Shown here one piece after another: positions 2,019-45,686 of a stretch of DNA of 64,000 nucleotides. Numbering within the stretch: position 1 is the first letter of the stretch; every line of letters starts with the position of its first letter. This DNA is from an uncultured Bacteroides sp. (GTDB taxonomy: Bacteria > Bacteroidota > Bacteroidia > Bacteroidales > Bacteroidaceae). The notes under the pieces were generated by a model. It did no database searches, was not told the DNA's origin, and worked only from the letters and a program-made list of their open reading frames with translations. The translations under genes and the position numbers were made by a program. The stretch is from assembly GCA_949300425.1 (NCBI GenBank), contig CASGED010000002.1:1-64000 (forward strand). The letters are read 5' to 3'.

Positions 2019-3090
2019 ATTTCAATATATTTTGGTTGAATATCTCTTTTTGGTTCAACAGGAAATCTACCTCAATAGGCAGCACGTGAATGTGCGGCTT
2101 CAGTTCCGGAGGAAGTGCGGGATGGTCTTTAAGGCGTGCCGCATCTTTCTCGGTGGTGAGGATGAAACGGTTCTTTGCTTCCATCTGTGCGAATTTTTGT
2201 CCGATGAGGCGCAAGTCGCCCGTGCTGAAGTCATGATGGTCTCCGAATGCCAACAAGGTGACTTGCCGCGTATATCGTTGCACTTCTTCTTGCATAGGGC
2301 GGGGTGAGGCAATGCCCGTTACCAGCAGAATCTGTGTGTCTTCTCCCGTAAGCGAGTCGGGCAAGATTTGCCGGGCGGCTTGTCCGGGAAACAGAGGCCT
2401 GGGGCTGCCGTAGCGCACTTGTGTGAAGTATAGCTGCTGGCAGGGGTAGAGTTGCAGGCGTTTAGCTGTGATGTTGAAGTCTATCGGCTTAATGTCTCTC
2501 GGACATTTGGTCACAATGACTATCTGCGCGCGATATTTGCCTGATGTCGGTTCGCGCAACAGGCCGGCAGGCAACAGGCGGTCTTCGCAAAACAAGCGGT
2601 TGTAGTCGGTAAGCAGGATGTTTAGCCCGGCATTGACATAACGGTGCTGGAAAGCATCGTCCAGCAAGATGACATCGGTGCGGGGAGTGTCCATTTGCAT
2701 CAATTTCTCGATACCCTCTCTGCGGTCGGCGTCCACGGCCACTCGTACGTTAGGGAACTTCTGTTTCATCTGACAAGGCTCGTCGCCCACCTCCCAAGCG
2801 GTGCTTTGCGGAGTAGCCAATACGTAGCCTTTCGTCTTACGCTTATACCCTCGACTCAACGTAGCTACCTGTAAACCTGCTTGTTGAAGCAAACGAATGA
2901 GGTATTCCGTATGGGGCGTCTTACCCGTGCCTCCCGCGGCTAAGTTTCCGATGCAGATGACGGGTATGCGAAAACTCTTTGACCGGAGCCATCCCCAGTC
3001 AAAGAGCTTATTTCGCAAGCCTACACCCCACCCATAAAGCCAGGAGAAGGGCAAAAGCCAATAGTTGATGTCGGGGCGGTGATCTGTCAT
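1981..3090 (-). CDS. lpxK: Tetraacyldisaccharide 4'-kinase
   Basis: LpxK phosphorylates the 4' position of the lipid A disaccharide at the inner membrane. The 369-residue protein has a hydrophobic N-terminal stretch (YWLLPFSWLYGWGVGLRN), the Walker A region GNLAAGGTGKTP near residue 49, LSRGYKRK, and DDAFQHRYV carrying the catalytic-region Asp. These fit the family well. It follows sppA by 20 bp and runs 38 bp into punA, an unusually long overlap between functionally unrelated genes. Confidence 0.94.
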   Translation of the reverse strand: MTDHRPDINYWLLPFSWLYGWGVGLRNKLFDWGWLRSKSFRIPVICIGNLAAGGTGKTPHTEYLIRLLQQAGLQVATLSRGYKRKTKGYVLATPQSTAWEVGDEPCQMKQKFPNVRVAVDADRREGIEKLMQMDTPRTDVILLDDAFQHRYVNAGLNILLTDYNRLFCEDRLLPAGLLREPTSGKYRAQIVIVTKCPRDIKPIDFNITAKRLQLYPCQQLYFTQVRYGSPRPLFPGQAARQILPDSLTGEDTQILLVTGIASPRPMQEEVQRYTRQVTLLAFGDHHDFSTGDLRLIGQKFAQMEAKNRFILTTEKDAARLKDHPALPPELKPHIHVLPIEVDFLLNQKEIFNQNILKYVRTHSRNSCLP

Positions 3091-3110
3091 GTCCCTGTCT
3101 TACATTTTAA

Positions 3111-4886
3111 TTATTGTACATTCAGTTCGAACGGAAGGCGTGCCTGGATGCGGTCGCTTTGGTCGAAGTGCTCAATGAGGCGGAACTGGCGCAGAGCCTC
3201 GTCCATTTGTTTACCGCCCGGTAAGAGCGCTTTCACGTAGGTGGTGGGATTGGTGTTCATCAGCGTTTCCCAGAAAGACGCTTTTGCGGGATATGCCATT
3301 ACCGTATAGGCGTCTATGCCCGCTTTCTCAATGGCTATTTCCAAAGCGCGGTCCAATCCGCCCAGTTCGTCCACCAGGCCTAACTCTTTGGCCTTGGCGC
3401 CTGTCCATACACGTCCTTGCGCTATCTTGTCCAGTTCCTCTTTCTCAATGCCGCGGCCTTCGGAGCAACGGGTCAGGAAGAGGTCATAGCCTTGATTTAC
3501 CATATTTTGCATCAATCCTTGCTCGCCGGCGTTGAGTGGACGTCCTACGGCACCGAAGTCGGCATACTCATTGGTCTTCACCACGTCAAAATCCAATCCA
3601 ACTTTGTCCGTCAGTCCCTTTACGTTGGGGTACATGCCAAAGATGCCGATAGAGCCGGTGAGTGTGGTAGGTTCGGCCACGATGGTATCGGCGTTGCACG
3701 ACATGTAGTAACCGCCCGAAGCCGCATAGTCGCCCATGGAGACGATGACCGGTTTCTCTTTTTTAAGCTGGCTTACGGCATACCACAATTGTTCAGAGCC
3801 GAAAGCGCTTCCGCCCGGCGAGTTGACGCGCAGCACGACCGCCTTCACGTCCTCATTCTCTTGCAGGCGTCGCAGGTCGCGGATGACCTTGGAAGGTACA
3901 ATGACTTGTTCGGTGCTGAAAGCGGACATGTCATAATCGGTGATTTCACCGGCCGCATAATACACGGCTACGATGTTGCCGCTCTTGTCTTTGGGCATGT
4001 TCTTGCGGATGTTTATCATGTCGTTCAAGCCCAACAGGCGCAGGTCATCATCCTCATCGATGCCGGCCATCTGTTTCAGATAGTCGCGCACGTCATTCTG
4101 ATAGATGAGGGTATCTACCAGCCCGCACTTCACGCTCTCTTCCGAGGGCTTGAACATCAGCATCTCATCGGCGTACCGGTTGAGCTGCTCTACTTTGAGG
4201 CCTCGAGACGCCGACACGCCTTCGCAAAGGCGTTGCCAAATCGAGGAGATGTAGGCCGTCACCTGTTCACGGTTGGCTTCGCTCATCTCGGTGGCGATGA
4301 ACGGCTCTACGGCCGATTTGTAAGTGCCCACTTTGAATATCTGCATTTCCACGCCGATTTTCTCCAGCAAGTCTTTGTAGAACATGGGAGCCGCGGCGAT
4401 GCCTCGCCACTCCAGCGAGCCTTTGGGATTCATCATCACCTTGTCCGCCGCGCTGGCCAGGTAGTAAAGCCCTTGCGTGTAGTTGTCGGCGTAGGCGGCT
4501 ACAAACTTGCCGCTCTCTTTGAAGTCCAGCAAAGCGTCGCGTATTTCTTCGATGGAAGCATAGCCGGCCGTTAAGAAGTTGGCACGCAAGTAAATGCCCT
4601 TGATGTTTTCGTTTTCTTTCGCCTTGCGGATGGAGGACAAGATGTCATCCAGACCATAATACTGATAGTCTTCGCTCATGAACATGTCATAGGGCAGGGA
4701 CTGGTTACGTTCCAGCAATTCGCCTTTGAGGTCGAGCACCATGATAGAGTTTGCCCGTACTTCCGTCTCCGTGTCAGCTGAAGACACTGCGCTGAAGAAG
4801 AACAGGATACTGATAAAGAACAACGCCACGCTCGCGAGGATTAAACCTACTACGGTGGCAAACGTGAATTTTAGAAAATCTTTCAT
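3111..4886 (-). CDS. sppA: Signal peptide peptidase SppA, 67-kDa type
   Basis: This 591-residue membrane-anchored serine protease removes remnant signal peptides. It has one N-terminal membrane segment (about residues 5-35), then two tandem S49 peptidase domains as in E. coli SppA. The second domain carries GDYAASGGYYMSCNAD, with the serine nucleophile in the ASGGYY motif. The first domain holds the dyad Lys region near ADKVMMNPKGSLEWRG. Length matches the long form of the family. A possible -7 box sits at 4926-4933, 40 bp upstream of the start. Confidence 0.94.
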   Translation of the reverse strand: MKDFLKFTFATVVGLILASVALFFISILFFFSAVSSADTETEVRANSIMVLDLKGELLERNQSLPYDMFMSEDYQYYGLDDILSSIRKAKENENIKGIYLRANFLTAGYASIEEIRDALLDFKESGKFVAAYADNYTQGLYYLASAADKVMMNPKGSLEWRGIAAAPMFYKDLLEKIGVEMQIFKVGTYKSAVEPFIATEMSEANREQVTAYISSIWQRLCEGVSASRGLKVEQLNRYADEMLMFKPSEESVKCGLVDTLIYQNDVRDYLKQMAGIDEDDDLRLLGLNDMINIRKNMPKDKSGNIVAVYYAAGEITDYDMSAFSTEQVIVPSKVIRDLRRLQENEDVKAVVLRVNSPGGSAFGSEQLWYAVSQLKKEKPVIVSMGDYAASGGYYMSCNADTIVAEPTTLTGSIGIFGMYPNVKGLTDKVGLDFDVVKTNEYADFGAVGRPLNAGEQGLMQNMVNQGYDLFLTRCSEGRGIEKEELDKIAQGRVWTGAKAKELGLVDELGGLDRALEIAIEKAGIDAYTVMAYPAKASFWETLMNTNPTTYVKALLPGGKQMDEALRQFRLIEHFDQSDRIQARLPFELNVQ

Positions 4887-43143: not shown

Positions 43144-44022
43144 TTAAGCTCCGATGTCCCGCAATTTGTCGAGAATGGCCTTTTGCACCTCCTCCATCAG
43201 CCATTTGGGGGTAGAAGTAGCGCCGCAGATGCCTATAGAGCGGACATCGTGCAACAGGTTACTGTCTATTTCCGCCACGTTGTCAATCAGATGCGAGTTC
43301 GGATTTACCTTCAGGCATTCGCTGAAAAGCATCTTGCCGTTCGAACTTTTCTTGCCACTTACGAAGAATATCAAGTCGTGCGCTGCCGCAAATGTGCGTA
43401 TATTGGGAATGCGGTTAGCCACTTGGCGACAGATTGTGTCGTAATACTCAAAAGACACGTCGGGAGCAATGTGTTCCTTGATATATTGTACTATCTGCTT
43501 AAACTCGTCCAATGACTTGGTGGTTTGCGAATAAAGGCAGATACTCTTGCTGAAATCCAACGTTTTGGCTTCGTCCAGTTTCTCTATCACGATGGCCTTG
43601 CCGCAGGTTTGCCCCACGAGACCCAATACCTCGGCATGTCCGTTCTTGCCGTAGATGACAATTTGCCTTTCTCCGTTGTTGTCATACTCCTGCTTGATTT
43701 TCTTTTGCAGGCGAAGTACGACCGGGCACGTCGCGTCAATGATTTCTATGTGGTTGCGACGGGCTATTTCGTACGTTTCGGGAGGTTCGCCGTGCGCCCG
43801 AAGCAACACCTTTACGTCGTGCAGGCGTTCAAACTCCTCATGCCCGATGGTAATAAGTCCCATATTCTTCAGTCGCTCCACTTCGCGGCTATTATGCACG
43901 ATGTCGCCCAAGCAATACAAAATACCACCCTTGGCCAACTCTTCTTCCGCTTTTCGTATGGCGGTCACTACGCCAAAACAGAAGCCTGAACCTTCGTCTA
44001 TTTCTACTTTTGTCATAATCAT
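43144..44022 (-). CDS. ispH: 4-hydroxy-3-methylbut-2-enyl diphosphate reductase
   Basis: The 292-residue iron-sulfur enzyme makes IPP and DMAPP in the last step of the MEP pathway. The three cluster cysteines are expected in GFCFGV (near residue 14), IDATCPVV, and GICGATSTP. The start at 44022 overlaps the MntA-like gene's stop by 4 bp; ATG at 44016 is an alternative. In many Bacteroides ispH directly follows cmk, so the MNT gene looks inserted between them. Confidence 0.95.
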   Translation of the reverse strand: MIMTKVEIDEGSGFCFGVVTAIRKAEEELAKGGILYCLGDIVHNSREVERLKNMGLITIGHEEFERLHDVKVLLRAHGEPPETYEIARRNHIEIIDATCPVVLRLQKKIKQEYDNNGERQIVIYGKNGHAEVLGLVGQTCGKAIVIEKLDEAKTLDFSKSICLYSQTTKSLDEFKQIVQYIKEHIAPDVSFEYYDTICRQVANRIPNIRTFAAAHDLIFFVSGKKSSNGKMLFSECLKVNPNSHLIDNVAEIDSNLLHDVRSIGICGATSTPKWLMEEVQKAILDKLRDIGA

Positions 44023-44327
44023 TCCCTTCCCTTTGAATAAAACACCTGTCCGACCCGGTCAATGTGTCCTCCTAACGGAGTGCCGGCTACTTTTTGGTAA
44101 TCTACGATATCTACTTTATATAGCAAATCCAGATCGTCTATCCGTAAATTCAAATCCAACATCAACTTAAATGAAATGTCTTCGCCTATCACCGCCAAAT
44201 CAATGTCTGAACCTGCCGTATAATTCCCTTTGGCTCTTGAGCCGAAGAGAATGACCTTACGGATGGAGGGAAAACTGCGAAATACTCGGCAAATATCTTC
44301 TCTTACTTCATCGCTTAGTCCATACAT
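44019..44327 (-). CDS. MntA-type nucleotidyltransferase (antitoxin of HEPN-MNT pair)
   Basis: The 102-residue protein is a minimal nucleotidyltransferase with GSRAKG and SDIDLAV, giving the full GS-x10-D-x-D motif (G29, S30, D41, D43). In HepT-MntA modules this enzyme transfers AMP to a Tyr of the HEPN toxin and blocks it. The upstream gene ends 2 bp before and carries a HEPN domain with the matching target motif. The stop overlaps ispH by 4 bp. Together the genes form a tight four-function transcript with cmk and ispH. Confidence 0.87.
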   Translation of the reverse strand: MYGLSDEVREDICRVFRSFPSIRKVILFGSRAKGNYTAGSDIDLAVIGEDISFKLMLDLNLRIDDLDLLYKVDIVDYQKVAGTPLGGHIDRVGQVFYSKGRE

Positions 44328-44329
44328 GG

Positions 44330-45472
44330 TTAAAATAACGTATTCATTTCACTTCTAATTTTTTCTTCATTCAATCGTATGTCAAGCTGTTTTAGCAAGC
44401 CGGAATATTCTTCATAGATTTGCTGCACGATTGCTATGGCATCTCCTTCATTATAAGTATGCGAAGTTGTGATGCGGGCTTTTGCCATTCGTCTCCATCC
44501 GTCATGATCGGTGATAAGTCCGTCTTCCAGTGCTTTTTGCAGTGTTCCGTTTGGACCTTGCACAAATTCGTATCCTTTGTATCTTAATAAGTCCTGAAGC
44601 ACTTTCCAACTCAATTCAAACGTATATTCGAACCGTTGGATTAATCCTTCCATTTCCAGTTCGGATAAGTCACTTGAAGTTCGTCCTGATTCTGTAATTT
44701 CCAATATTCGTTTGTTGGCACGGTGAAAGTTGTCATAGCGTTGCAGCCAGCGAATATCTTTCTCCTCACTCTTTGCCGGAGCAGTTAATCCCACGACCCG
44801 TTCATATTGCTGCATCAGCCACGCTTTTTGTTGCTCAATGCTCAAGTAGCTGTTATCCAGCAGCAGGGCGTCATCAGCCTTGCGTAGCGGGCTTACTTCA
44901 CGGTTTTGGTCAATATAGTCTCGTTGTTTCACGTTCTCCAATATTTCCTCATAGCTGGCTGGTTGTCCTTTTTCTTTCAGCTCATCATAGCGGCGTTGCG
45001 CACGGATTTCCGGTGAAGCGGTTACAAAAACCTTCAGTTCAGCGTCCGGAAAGACCGTTGTGCCGATGTCCCGCCCGTCCATGACGATACCTTTCTCCTT
45101 TCCCATCTCCTGCTGTTGTGTCACCATGGCTTCGCGCACAAAGTCCAATGCGGCGATGGGACTTACATGTGAAGACACTTCCATGGTGCGTATTTTGTCC
45201 TCCACGTTTGTCTCATTAAGGTATGTGTCCGGGCGTCCTGTAGCCGGGTTGAGCTTAAAGGAAATTTTGATTTGCTCTATTTGCTTTTTTAATCTTTCCG
45301 TATCAATATAATCAGCCTCAAACATTCCGTTTTCCAAAGCGTATAAAGTTACGGCACGGTACATGGCGCCGCTGTCTATGTAGATGTACCCTATCTCACG
45401 AGCCAAGTCTTTGGCCATAGTGCTTTTCCCGCACGAGGAAAAACCGTCGATTGCGATAATTATTTTCTTCAT
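44330..45472 (-). CDS. cmk: Cytidylate kinase fused to HEPN (HepT/HI0074-like) domain
   Basis: Residues 1 to about 229 are a complete cytidylate kinase, with P-loop GFSSCGKST (10-18), [12 protein letters not shown] (131-142) and [13 protein letters not shown]. They are followed in frame, with no ATG between, by about 145 residues of a HEPN/HI0074-family nucleotidyltransferase-substrate-binding domain. This carries the RNase-type motif R-x4-H-x-Y (R333, H338, Y340). Ordinary Cmk proteins end near 230. Start 45472 was chosen because the P-loop domain begins there. The MNT partner follows after 2 bp. A stop or frameshift lost from an older two-gene arrangement could explain the fusion. Confidence 0.9.
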
Positions 45473-45541: not shown

Positions 45542-45549
45542 CAAAGATA
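45542..45549 (-). promoter_or_regulatory. Candidate -7 box for cmk-hepT-mntA-ispH
   Basis: The minus strand reads TATCTTTG, about 70 bp before the chosen cmk start. The intervening leader is A/T-rich. No -33 partner is convincing. Confidence 0.45.
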
Positions 45550-45686
45550 AGGCTATTTTTAAAATATCTTGCTACATTTGTGGCACAAAAGTATAAGTTG
45601 ACTTTTGAAGGATTAAAAAAATAAAAATGCAACGGTTTGCGGTGTAAAAAAAAGCATTTACGCATGAGCATTCATGGGAAAAGTGC

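What the first reader, a model, noticed from the sequence alone, without database searches (positions are those of the whole stretch)
44019..45472. Cytidylate kinase fused to a HEPN toxin-like domain, followed by its MNT partner
Seen: one 380-codon frame holds a full Cmk (P-loop residues 10-18) followed in frame, without an ATG, by a HEPN/HI0074-like domain with R-x4-H-x-Y (R333, H338, Y340). Two bp later a 102-residue nucleotidyltransferase carries GS-x10-D-x-D (residues 29-43), and it overlaps ispH by 4 bp. Known: HepT-MntA pairs are toxin-antitoxin systems where MNT modifies a Tyr of HEPN. Inference: a toxin domain is tied to an essential nucleotide kinase, so the module cannot be lost, or the kinase activity feeds or senses the nucleotide used for AMP transfer. 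I know of no described Cmk-HEPN fusion.
Basis: partly seen in the sequence, partly recalled or inferred. Interest (0 to 1): 0.85.

Follow-up and report, generated by a model that had tools for sequence, protein, structure and literature searches.

The report
Toxin–antitoxin pair fused onto nucleotide kinase
In one Bacteroides-like genome a mobile toxin–antitoxin pair has landed between two housekeeping genes so that its predicted RNA-cutting toxin is read as the tail of the nucleotide enzyme cytidylate kinase, an arrangement not found in the other genomes examined.

Summary
Window 45472–44330 (minus strand) is one 380-codon frame. It codes a complete (d)CMP kinase (residues 3–215), a short linker, and a complete HI0074-type HEPN domain (244–368) with its active-site residues. 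Two bases later lies an intact 102-residue MNT nucleotidyltransferase, then ispH.

Cause: a recent insertion. In the nearest relative (Cmk 96% identical) cmk ends VVGLL-stop, 9 bases before ispH. Here about 770 bp replaces 16 bp holding the last codon, the stop and the spacer. Related HEPN domains elsewhere are not joined to Cmk, and no second fusion was found.

An assembly error is unlikely: both flanks are syntenic, the 20 bases before the junction match the relative, and the toxin's own ATG is gone.

Most likely a mobile type-VII-like module was captured in frame, making a Cmk–HEPN protein whose HEPN half MNT neutralises by adding AMP to Tyr340. Kinase and toxin activity, neutralisation and production of the long protein are inferred, not shown. 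Nothing supports the kinase feeding or sensing AMP transfer. New variant of a known kind, from one draft genome.

The parts
44330..45472 (-). cmk–HEPN fused reading frame, 380 codons + stop
   Evidence: stop-to-stop frame 413 aa
44786..45472 (-). Cmk part (residues 1–229), complete (d)CMP kinase; only cmk found in this 84%-complete assembly
   Evidence: TIGR00017 239.9 bits; 96% identical to the unfused Cmk of G145, dN/dS 0.037; single match in G000
45419..45445 (-). Cmk P-loop GFSSCGKST, residues 10–18
   Evidence: invariant in alignment of 8 Cmk rows apart from residue 11
44759..44785 (-). linker TAPAKSEEK (residues 230–238); about where relatives' cmk has its stop and relatives' HEPN its ATG
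44333..44758 (-). HEPN domain, HI0074 / PF08780 type (residues 239–380)
   Evidence: PF08780 4.2e-30, TIGR01987 1.8e-22; PDB 8XDJ HEPN toxin 1.4e-21
44627..44638 (-). Q279–E282, equivalent of the Mg2+ RNase site Q44/E47 of the Legionella HEPN
   Evidence: alignment; residues named in PMC11586414
44453..44476 (-). R-x4-H-x-Y motif: R333, H338, Y340 (Y340 = expected AMP acceptor)
   Evidence: role from PMC11586414 (sections) and PMC7641770 (abstract)
44813..44815 (-). in-frame ATG (Met220), possible internal start
   Evidence: same codon present in unfused G145
44792..44794 (-). in-frame GTG (Val227), possible internal start
   Evidence: same codon in G145
44019..44327 (-). MNT nucleotidyltransferase, 102 aa, antitoxin candidate
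   Evidence: PF18765 5.3e-19; MntA NF047752 51.1 bits, below its cut-off of 60; PDB 8XEH MNT 3e-16
44199..44243 (-). MNT GS-x10-D-x-D motif, residues 29–43
   Evidence: kept in the alignment
44017..44786 (-). inserted segment (about 770 bp) relative to G145, replacing 16 bp between cmk codon 229 and the ispH ATG
   Evidence: GC3 36.8% (HEPN) and 41.7% (MNT) against 61.9±10.0 for 38 window ORFs over 250 aa
43144..44022 (-). ispH; native start probably ATG at 44016 (third codon)
45542..45593 (-). two TAnnTTTG boxes upstream of cmk, possible promoter -7 elements
   Evidence: motif recalled; it is over-represented in the whole 6-kb stretch, 11 found against 4.55 expected, so weak evidence

Best explanation
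A mobile HEPN–MNT toxin–antitoxin module of the HI0074/HI0073 (type VII-like) kind inserted recently between cmk and ispH in this Bacteroides-like lineage. The last cmk codon and the stop were lost, and the HEPN frame runs on in frame. SHOWN: the fused frame, the insertion relative to four sister species, the intact partner, the conserved active-site residues, the absence of HEPN's own ATG. INFERRED: the cell makes a Cmk–HEPN protein of 380 residues from the cmk promoter. Cmk keeps its function, because the gene is the only copy found and is under strong constraint. The HEPN half dimerises and would cut RNA. MNT, translated from the ATG 2 bp behind, neutralises it by adding AMP to Tyr340 when ATP is plentiful. 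The result would be a toxin whose dose is set by a housekeeping gene and which cannot be removed without touching cmk.
For: Domain matches above curated cut-offs. The same site in G145, G168, G141 and G144 has cmk stop, 7–9 bp spacer, ispH; cmk is followed directly by ispH in all 29 congener loci held. The five close standalone HEPN rows have an ATG shortly before D-I-R-W where this frame has no start codon. No Cmk was detected in the DNA held for 41 HEPN loci from named records. Low GC3 of HEPN and MNT. The Mg2+-site Gln and Glu and the Arg, His and Tyr of RX4HXY in the closest solved relative are kept (PMC11586414). Precedent of MNT–HEPN insertion inside a housekeeping operon (Thermus lysine operon; PMC2701414 section 20). 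Cmk can carry a C-terminal partner: NCBIfam holds Cmk–Der, and G005 has an in-frame Cmk–IspH frame, itself unverified.
Against: One draft genome (83.6% complete), no second strain, no reads, transcript or protein data. No recurrence, so no sign that the fusion itself is selected. The insertion is recent, so intact frames say little about selection after fusion, and part of the Cmk constraint may predate it. Residues that hold the Legionella HEPN tetramer (Q64, R73) are K299 and N308 here, and there the MNT needed the tetramer to AMPylate, so neutralisation may differ. In that protein R98A and H103A hardly changed RNase activity, so keeping R and H says little about catalysis. MNT is below the MntA equivalog cut-off. 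A bulky N-terminal Cmk may weaken the RNase, since N-terminal residues line its presumed RNA crevice. Essentiality of cmk here is not shown.
Confidence: 0.6

Rival explanations
1. Harmless passenger: the fusion is an accident of insertion. The HEPN tail is translated but has been disarmed by its N-terminal Cmk or is on its way to decay, and MNT is a leftover.
For: No second case: own is the only hit over the family cut-off with a frame above 260 aa among 101 carriers of 395 genomes and 82 carriers of 393, own included in both. Recent insertion. Broken or shortened HEPN copies occur in relatives, e.g. L040, L055, L070.
Against: Both frames are complete and the active-site residues are kept.
Confidence: 0.25
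2. Two products: HEPN is mainly made as a free toxin by internal initiation at Met220 or Val227, and the fusion is a by-product.
For: In-frame ATG and GTG codons lie 12–19 codons before the HEPN core (Asp239).
Against: Those codons are ordinary Cmk codons also present in the unfused G145; no start in the linker; the HEPN ATG of close relatives is absent. Initiation strength was not tested.
Confidence: 0.1
3. Sequencing or assembly artefact that hides a stop codon or joins two loci.
For: A draft genome of 142 contigs; an out-of-frame TAA lies at the junction.
Against: The last 20 bases before the junction are identical to G145; both flanks are syntenic with four sister species; a stop there would leave HEPN with no common start codon before codon 257, inside the domain.
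Confidence: 0.05
4. One reading: Cmk supplies or senses the nucleotide used by MNT.
For: Only that both enzymes use ATP (established knowledge).
Against: Cmk makes no ATP; no recurrence of the pairing; no change at the invariant residues of Cmk.
Confidence: 0.03

Closest known systems
HEPN–MNT (type VII) module of Legionella pneumophila, PDB 8XDJ/8XEH (PMC11586414, sections read)
   Same: Same HEPN subfamily (1.4e-21); MNT aligns almost end to end (residues 1–99, 3e-16) with an MNT described as lacking the C-terminal helix; same RX4HXY, Mg2+-site and GSX10DXD residues
   Different: There HEPN is a free protein (139-residue chain); here it is the C-terminal half of Cmk. Tetramer residues Q64/R73 not kept.
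HepT/MntA of Shewanella oneidensis (PMC7641770, abstract and outline seen)
   Same: GSX10DXD motif in MNT and a tyrosine next to the RNase motif; neutralisation by AMP transfer there
   Different: HepT-like PF01934 match here is only 15.1 bits (cut-off 23.5); MntA model 51.1 bits (cut-off 60)
HI0074/HI0073 pair of Haemophilus influenzae (PDB 1JOG, 1NO5)
   Same: Family models TIGR01987 and PF08780; PDB matches 9.9e-8 and 3.1e-4
   Different: Deposited as two separate proteins
Cmk fusion enzymes: Cmk–Der, PanC–Cmk, AroA–Cmk (NCBIfam PRK09518, PRK13477, PRK11860)
   Same: A complete Cmk joined to another enzyme; in Cmk–Der the partner follows Cmk
   Different: The partners there are housekeeping enzymes, not a toxin-type HEPN domain; none of these three models reaches its cut-off here
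MNT–HEPN insertion in the lysine operon of Thermus thermophilus HB8 (PMC2701414, section 20 read)
   Same: Recent insertion of such a module into a housekeeping operon
   Different: No fusion to an operon gene is reported there

Membership tests
(d)CMP kinase (TIGR00017) | equivalog model score above cut-off | tested here: met
   239.9 against 135.55 bits, residues 3–215
(d)CMP kinase (TIGR00017) | P-loop and conserved core residues | tested here: met
   alignment of 8 rows
(d)CMP kinase (TIGR00017) | phosphorylates (d)CMP with ATP | not testable with these tools
   needs assay
HI0074-type HEPN (PF08780 / TIGR01987) | model scores above cut-off | tested here: met
   104.8 against 31.8; 79.7 against 55.8
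HEPN–MNT (type VII) toxin–antitoxin module | R-x4-H-x-Y in HEPN | tested here: met
   R333, H338, Y340 invariant in 24 rows
HEPN–MNT (type VII) toxin–antitoxin module | GS-x10-D-x-D in MNT | tested here: met
   residues 29–43
HEPN–MNT (type VII) toxin–antitoxin module | HEPN and MNT genes adjacent and co-directional | tested here: met
   2-bp gap; HEPN first in the relatives where both were found
HEPN–MNT (type VII) toxin–antitoxin module | mobile, patchy distribution | tested here: met
   27 of 158 congeners and 28 of 399 family genomes carry a relative of this HEPN, own included; several unrelated neighbourhoods
HEPN–MNT (type VII) toxin–antitoxin module | toxin is a small separate protein (usual form) | tested here: not met
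   HEPN has no start in the linker and continues Cmk
HEPN–MNT (type VII) toxin–antitoxin module | HEPN toxic, neutralised by AMP on Tyr | not testable with these tools
   needs expression and mass spectrometry
MntA equivalog (NF047752) | model score above cut-off 60 | tested here: not met
   51.1 bits
HepT-like PF01934 | model score above cut-off 23.5 | tested here: not met
   15.1 bits

The most novel reading that the evidence does not exclude
A toxin–antitoxin module has made itself inseparable from a housekeeping gene. The Cmk–HEPN protein is at once the cell's only (d)CMP kinase and an RNase held in check by MNT-dependent AMPylation, so loss or failure of MNT poisons the cell through its own kinase. 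An RNA-cutting domain is thereby joined to the enzyme that re-phosphorylates CMP from RNA turnover, under ATP-dependent control.
Probability: 0.3. Interest if true: 0.75.

Novelty: new variant of a known kind. Interest (0 to 1): 0.5.

Why it matters
If the fused HEPN is active and held by MNT, this would be a caught-in-the-act example of a toxin–antitoxin module becoming part of a housekeeping enzyme. It would allow direct tests of whether fusion to a housekeeping protein fixes a module, disarms it, or turns it into a regulator. Whatever the outcome, it shows the insertion route: a precise landing between two tightly packed housekeeping genes, with the upstream stop codon lost. The arrangement was found in one genome, so the broader meaning is limited until more strains are seen.

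Tried and rejected
Recurrence of the fusion: HEPN searches of 158 congener and 399 family genomes, PF08780 in 395 phylum and 393 order genomes (these samples overlap), and 41 loci from named records gave no second Cmk–HEPN frame. Frames of 315–374 aa in G002, G165 and G033 hold no detectable Cmk. The 852-aa frame in G1280 belongs to a hit below the cut-off and was not followed; nor was the 649-aa frame around a HEPN fragment in L131, where no Cmk was detected. Several of the 41 loci are cut short by contig ends. The long Cmk frames in G110, G1603, G1319 and G1447 do not extend Cmk at its C-terminus; G1456 (312 aa) was not fetched. The match lists were cut by the tool, so their frame counts cover the listed rows only.

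Mobile-element sources: viral-contig scans found nothing; phage records gave 4 relatives under 60% identity; plasmid records gave 98 with a HEPN relative, all under 60% identity, and none in which one place covers 80% of the fusion. PADLOC gave only weak hits (VakA 30.9 bits for the fusion; 33.2 bits at best for MNT). Literature searches on cmk essentiality and toxin domains fused to essential genes listed one unrelated paper each.

Partner swap between HEPN and MNT: the MNT is on a longer branch (0.44) than the HEPN (0.15), but the trees are poorly resolved; not claimed.

Rows dropped: L040, L050, L052, L056, L057, L059, L070 (broken, shortened, duplicate or HEPN–MNT-merged frames); 23 of 41 genome-contig loci were used and 9 of 41 in the trees. 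dS was saturated (reported as -1) in many pairs, and those dN/dS values are not used.

Full report
WHAT IS THERE. The minus-strand frame 45472–44330 codes for 380 residues without a stop. Residues 3–215 are (d)CMP kinase (TIGR00017, 239.9 bits, cut-off 135.55). Residues 244–368 are a PF08780 domain (104.8 bits, cut-off 31.8), and 245–363 match HI0074 TIGR01987 (79.7 bits, cut-off 55.8). Two bases on, 44327–44019 codes a 102-residue nucleotidyltransferase (PF18765, 68.6 bits, cut-off 26.9). ispH follows. Its listed ORF starts 4 bp inside MNT, but most relatives' IspH aligns from its third codon, so the native ATG is probably 44016. The assembly (3.34 Mb, 142 contigs, 83.6% complete) holds one Cmk match, one PF08780 match and one MNT match. 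The genus is taken to be Bacteroides: congener contigs have the lengths of named Bacteroides records, e.g. G065:C1 and B. congonensis NZ_FQXY01000011.1, both 1,852,904 bases. This, and that the genome is a MAG, is inference.

HOW IT AROSE. In the 29 congener loci held, cmk is followed directly by ispH in 29 of 29. The gap is −26 to 212 bp measured to the position of the window ORF's first ispH codon, 6 bp more to the native ATG. Cmk is 228–245 residues long there. The closest Cmk is G145 (96% aa identity, 91.1% nt). There cmk reads GTC GTG GGA TTG TTA TAA, then 9 bases, then the ispH ATG. The window reads GTC GTG GGA TTA ACT GCT CCG GCA AAG AGT GAG GAG AAA GAT ATT and goes on into HEPN. At the other end MNT finishes just before the same ispH ATG. 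G168, G141 and G144 have the plain arrangement too, with spacers of 7–9 bp. About 770 bp was thus gained and 16 bp lost on this lineage. G145 also gave no HEPN match anywhere, though it is only 89% complete. HEPN and MNT have 40.6% and 42.4% G+C, with GC3 of 36.8 and 41.7. The neighbouring genes have GC3 of 54.6 (cmk), 60.8 (ispH) and 58.7 (pfkA), and 38 window ORFs over 250 aa average 61.9 ± 10.0. This fits a recent arrival, although some standalone relatives are as AT-rich and others are not.

WHY THE FUSION IS PROBABLY REAL. The last 20 bases before the junction are identical to G145, and both flanks are syntenic. A stop at the junction would leave HEPN with no common start codon before codon 257, inside the domain. 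The ATG that close standalone relatives have just before D-I-R-W is absent. The only nearby in-frame starts, ATG 220 and GTG 227, are codons that G145 also has. Reads and a second strain were not available.

HOW FAR IT IS UNIQUE. Relatives of this HEPN occur in 27 of 158 congener genomes and 28 of 399 family genomes. PF08780 occurs in 101 of 395 phylum genomes and 82 of 393 order genomes. All four counts include this genome, and the samples overlap. Among hits over the cut-off no frame but this one exceeds 260 aa, while a Cmk–HEPN frame needs about 350; one sub-cut-off hit (G1280) lies in an 852-aa frame that was not followed. In one search the next longest frame is 254 aa. Three longer frames hold no detectable Cmk. 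In two congeners (L050, L052) HEPN and MNT lie in one frame with each other, again without Cmk. In 41 loci from named records no Cmk was detected in the DNA held, up to 3 kb on either side and less where contigs end. From the Cmk side, 151 of 158 congeners have a match. In the rows listed, frames over 310 aa are this one, G005 (an in-frame Cmk–IspH frame) and G110, whose Cmk itself stops at 229 aa. In 395 class genomes, 364 with Cmk, the rows listed show four other frames over 310 aa; three were read and are extended upstream only, one (G1456, 312 aa) was not read. The NCBIfam models hit include Cmk with Der, PanC and AroA, none with HEPN. The HEPN survey PMC3710099 (passages only) lists MNT, a resolvase-like nuclease and methylases as occasional partners of this HEPN group, and 'cytidylate' does not occur in its main text. 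Literature searches for cytidylate kinase with HEPN and fusion (0 papers) or with toxin-antitoxin and 'fused' (2 papers, seen as listings) gave nothing relevant by title and abstract start; neither did (5 papers, listings).

HOW IT MOST LIKELY WORKS. The nearest solved relatives are the Legionella HEPN (8XDJ, 1.4e-21) and its MNT (8XEH, 3e-16). Of PMC11586414 I read the abstract, parts 1 and 2 of 3 of the Results, part 1 of 2 of the Discussion, and section 17. There HEPN is a Mg2+-dependent RNase with Q44 and E47 at the metal site; R98A and H103A hardly changed activity. MNT adds AMP to Y105, and in the authors' model low ATP leaves the toxin active. By the alignment these are Q279, E282 and Y340 here; R98 and H103 are R333 and H338. 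All five are kept. The residues that hold the Legionella tetramer, Q64 and R73, are K299 and N308 here, so oligomer state and neutralisation may differ. The expected picture is a Cmk–HEPN dimer neutralised by AMP on Tyr340, with the dose set by the cmk promoter. The gene's constraint (dN/dS 0.037 against G145) argues that Cmk is still needed, but much of that divergence may predate the insertion, and essentiality of cmk here is not shown (one search found nothing on Bacteroides). Whether the RNase is active with Cmk on its N-terminus is open: in the Legionella protein N-terminal residues form the presumed RNA crevices, so attenuation is plausible and would also explain why the fusion is tolerated.

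WHAT SPEAKS AGAINST A FUNCTIONAL FUSION. It is one draft genome, recent and not recurrent in the samples. MNT falls below the MntA equivalog cut-off (51.1 against 60). Broken HEPN copies exist in relatives. A structure model could not be made. That the kinase serves the AMP-transfer reaction has no support here.

VERDICT. It is a new variant of a known kind: a HEPN–MNT module captured in frame by a housekeeping kinase through a recent insertion. The DNA-level claim is strong, the single polypeptide likely, and the live, MNT-controlled toxin unproven.

Noticed in passing
L071 (G005:C8:38500-42500), + coordinates 1132–2715 on the minus strand: In a congener cmk runs in frame straight into ispH (518-aa Cmk–IspH frame). 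It may be a real fusion or a small indel in a draft genome.
   Followed up: partly
L101 (Prevotella sp. RGIG4438), 2431–4024: Two HEPN–MNT pairs stand in tandem, 72% and 36% identical to the window's HEPN.
   Followed up: no
L050 (G175) and L052 (G119): HEPN and MNT lie in one reading frame with each other.
   Followed up: no
window 44019–44327: The MNT is more diverged from its relatives than its HEPN (58% against 83% identity to L033), on a longer tree branch (0.44 against 0.15); possible partner exchange or faster evolution.
   Followed up: partly
L040, L055, L070: Broken or shortened HEPN copies in relatives, in L040 beside a full-length MNT: the modules seem to decay.
   Followed up: no
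L072 and L078 (G065 and G080): HEPN–MNT in two congeners with similar DNA just upstream and a similar gene on one side: HEPN frame full in one, broken in the other.
   Followed up: no
L131 (Duganella aquatilis), around 3040: A HEPN fragment lies in a 649-aa open frame (566 aa upstream of it); content not examined.
   Followed up: no
window 43144–44022: The listed ispH ORF has two extra N-terminal codons that come with the insertion; the native start is probably 44016.
   Followed up: yes
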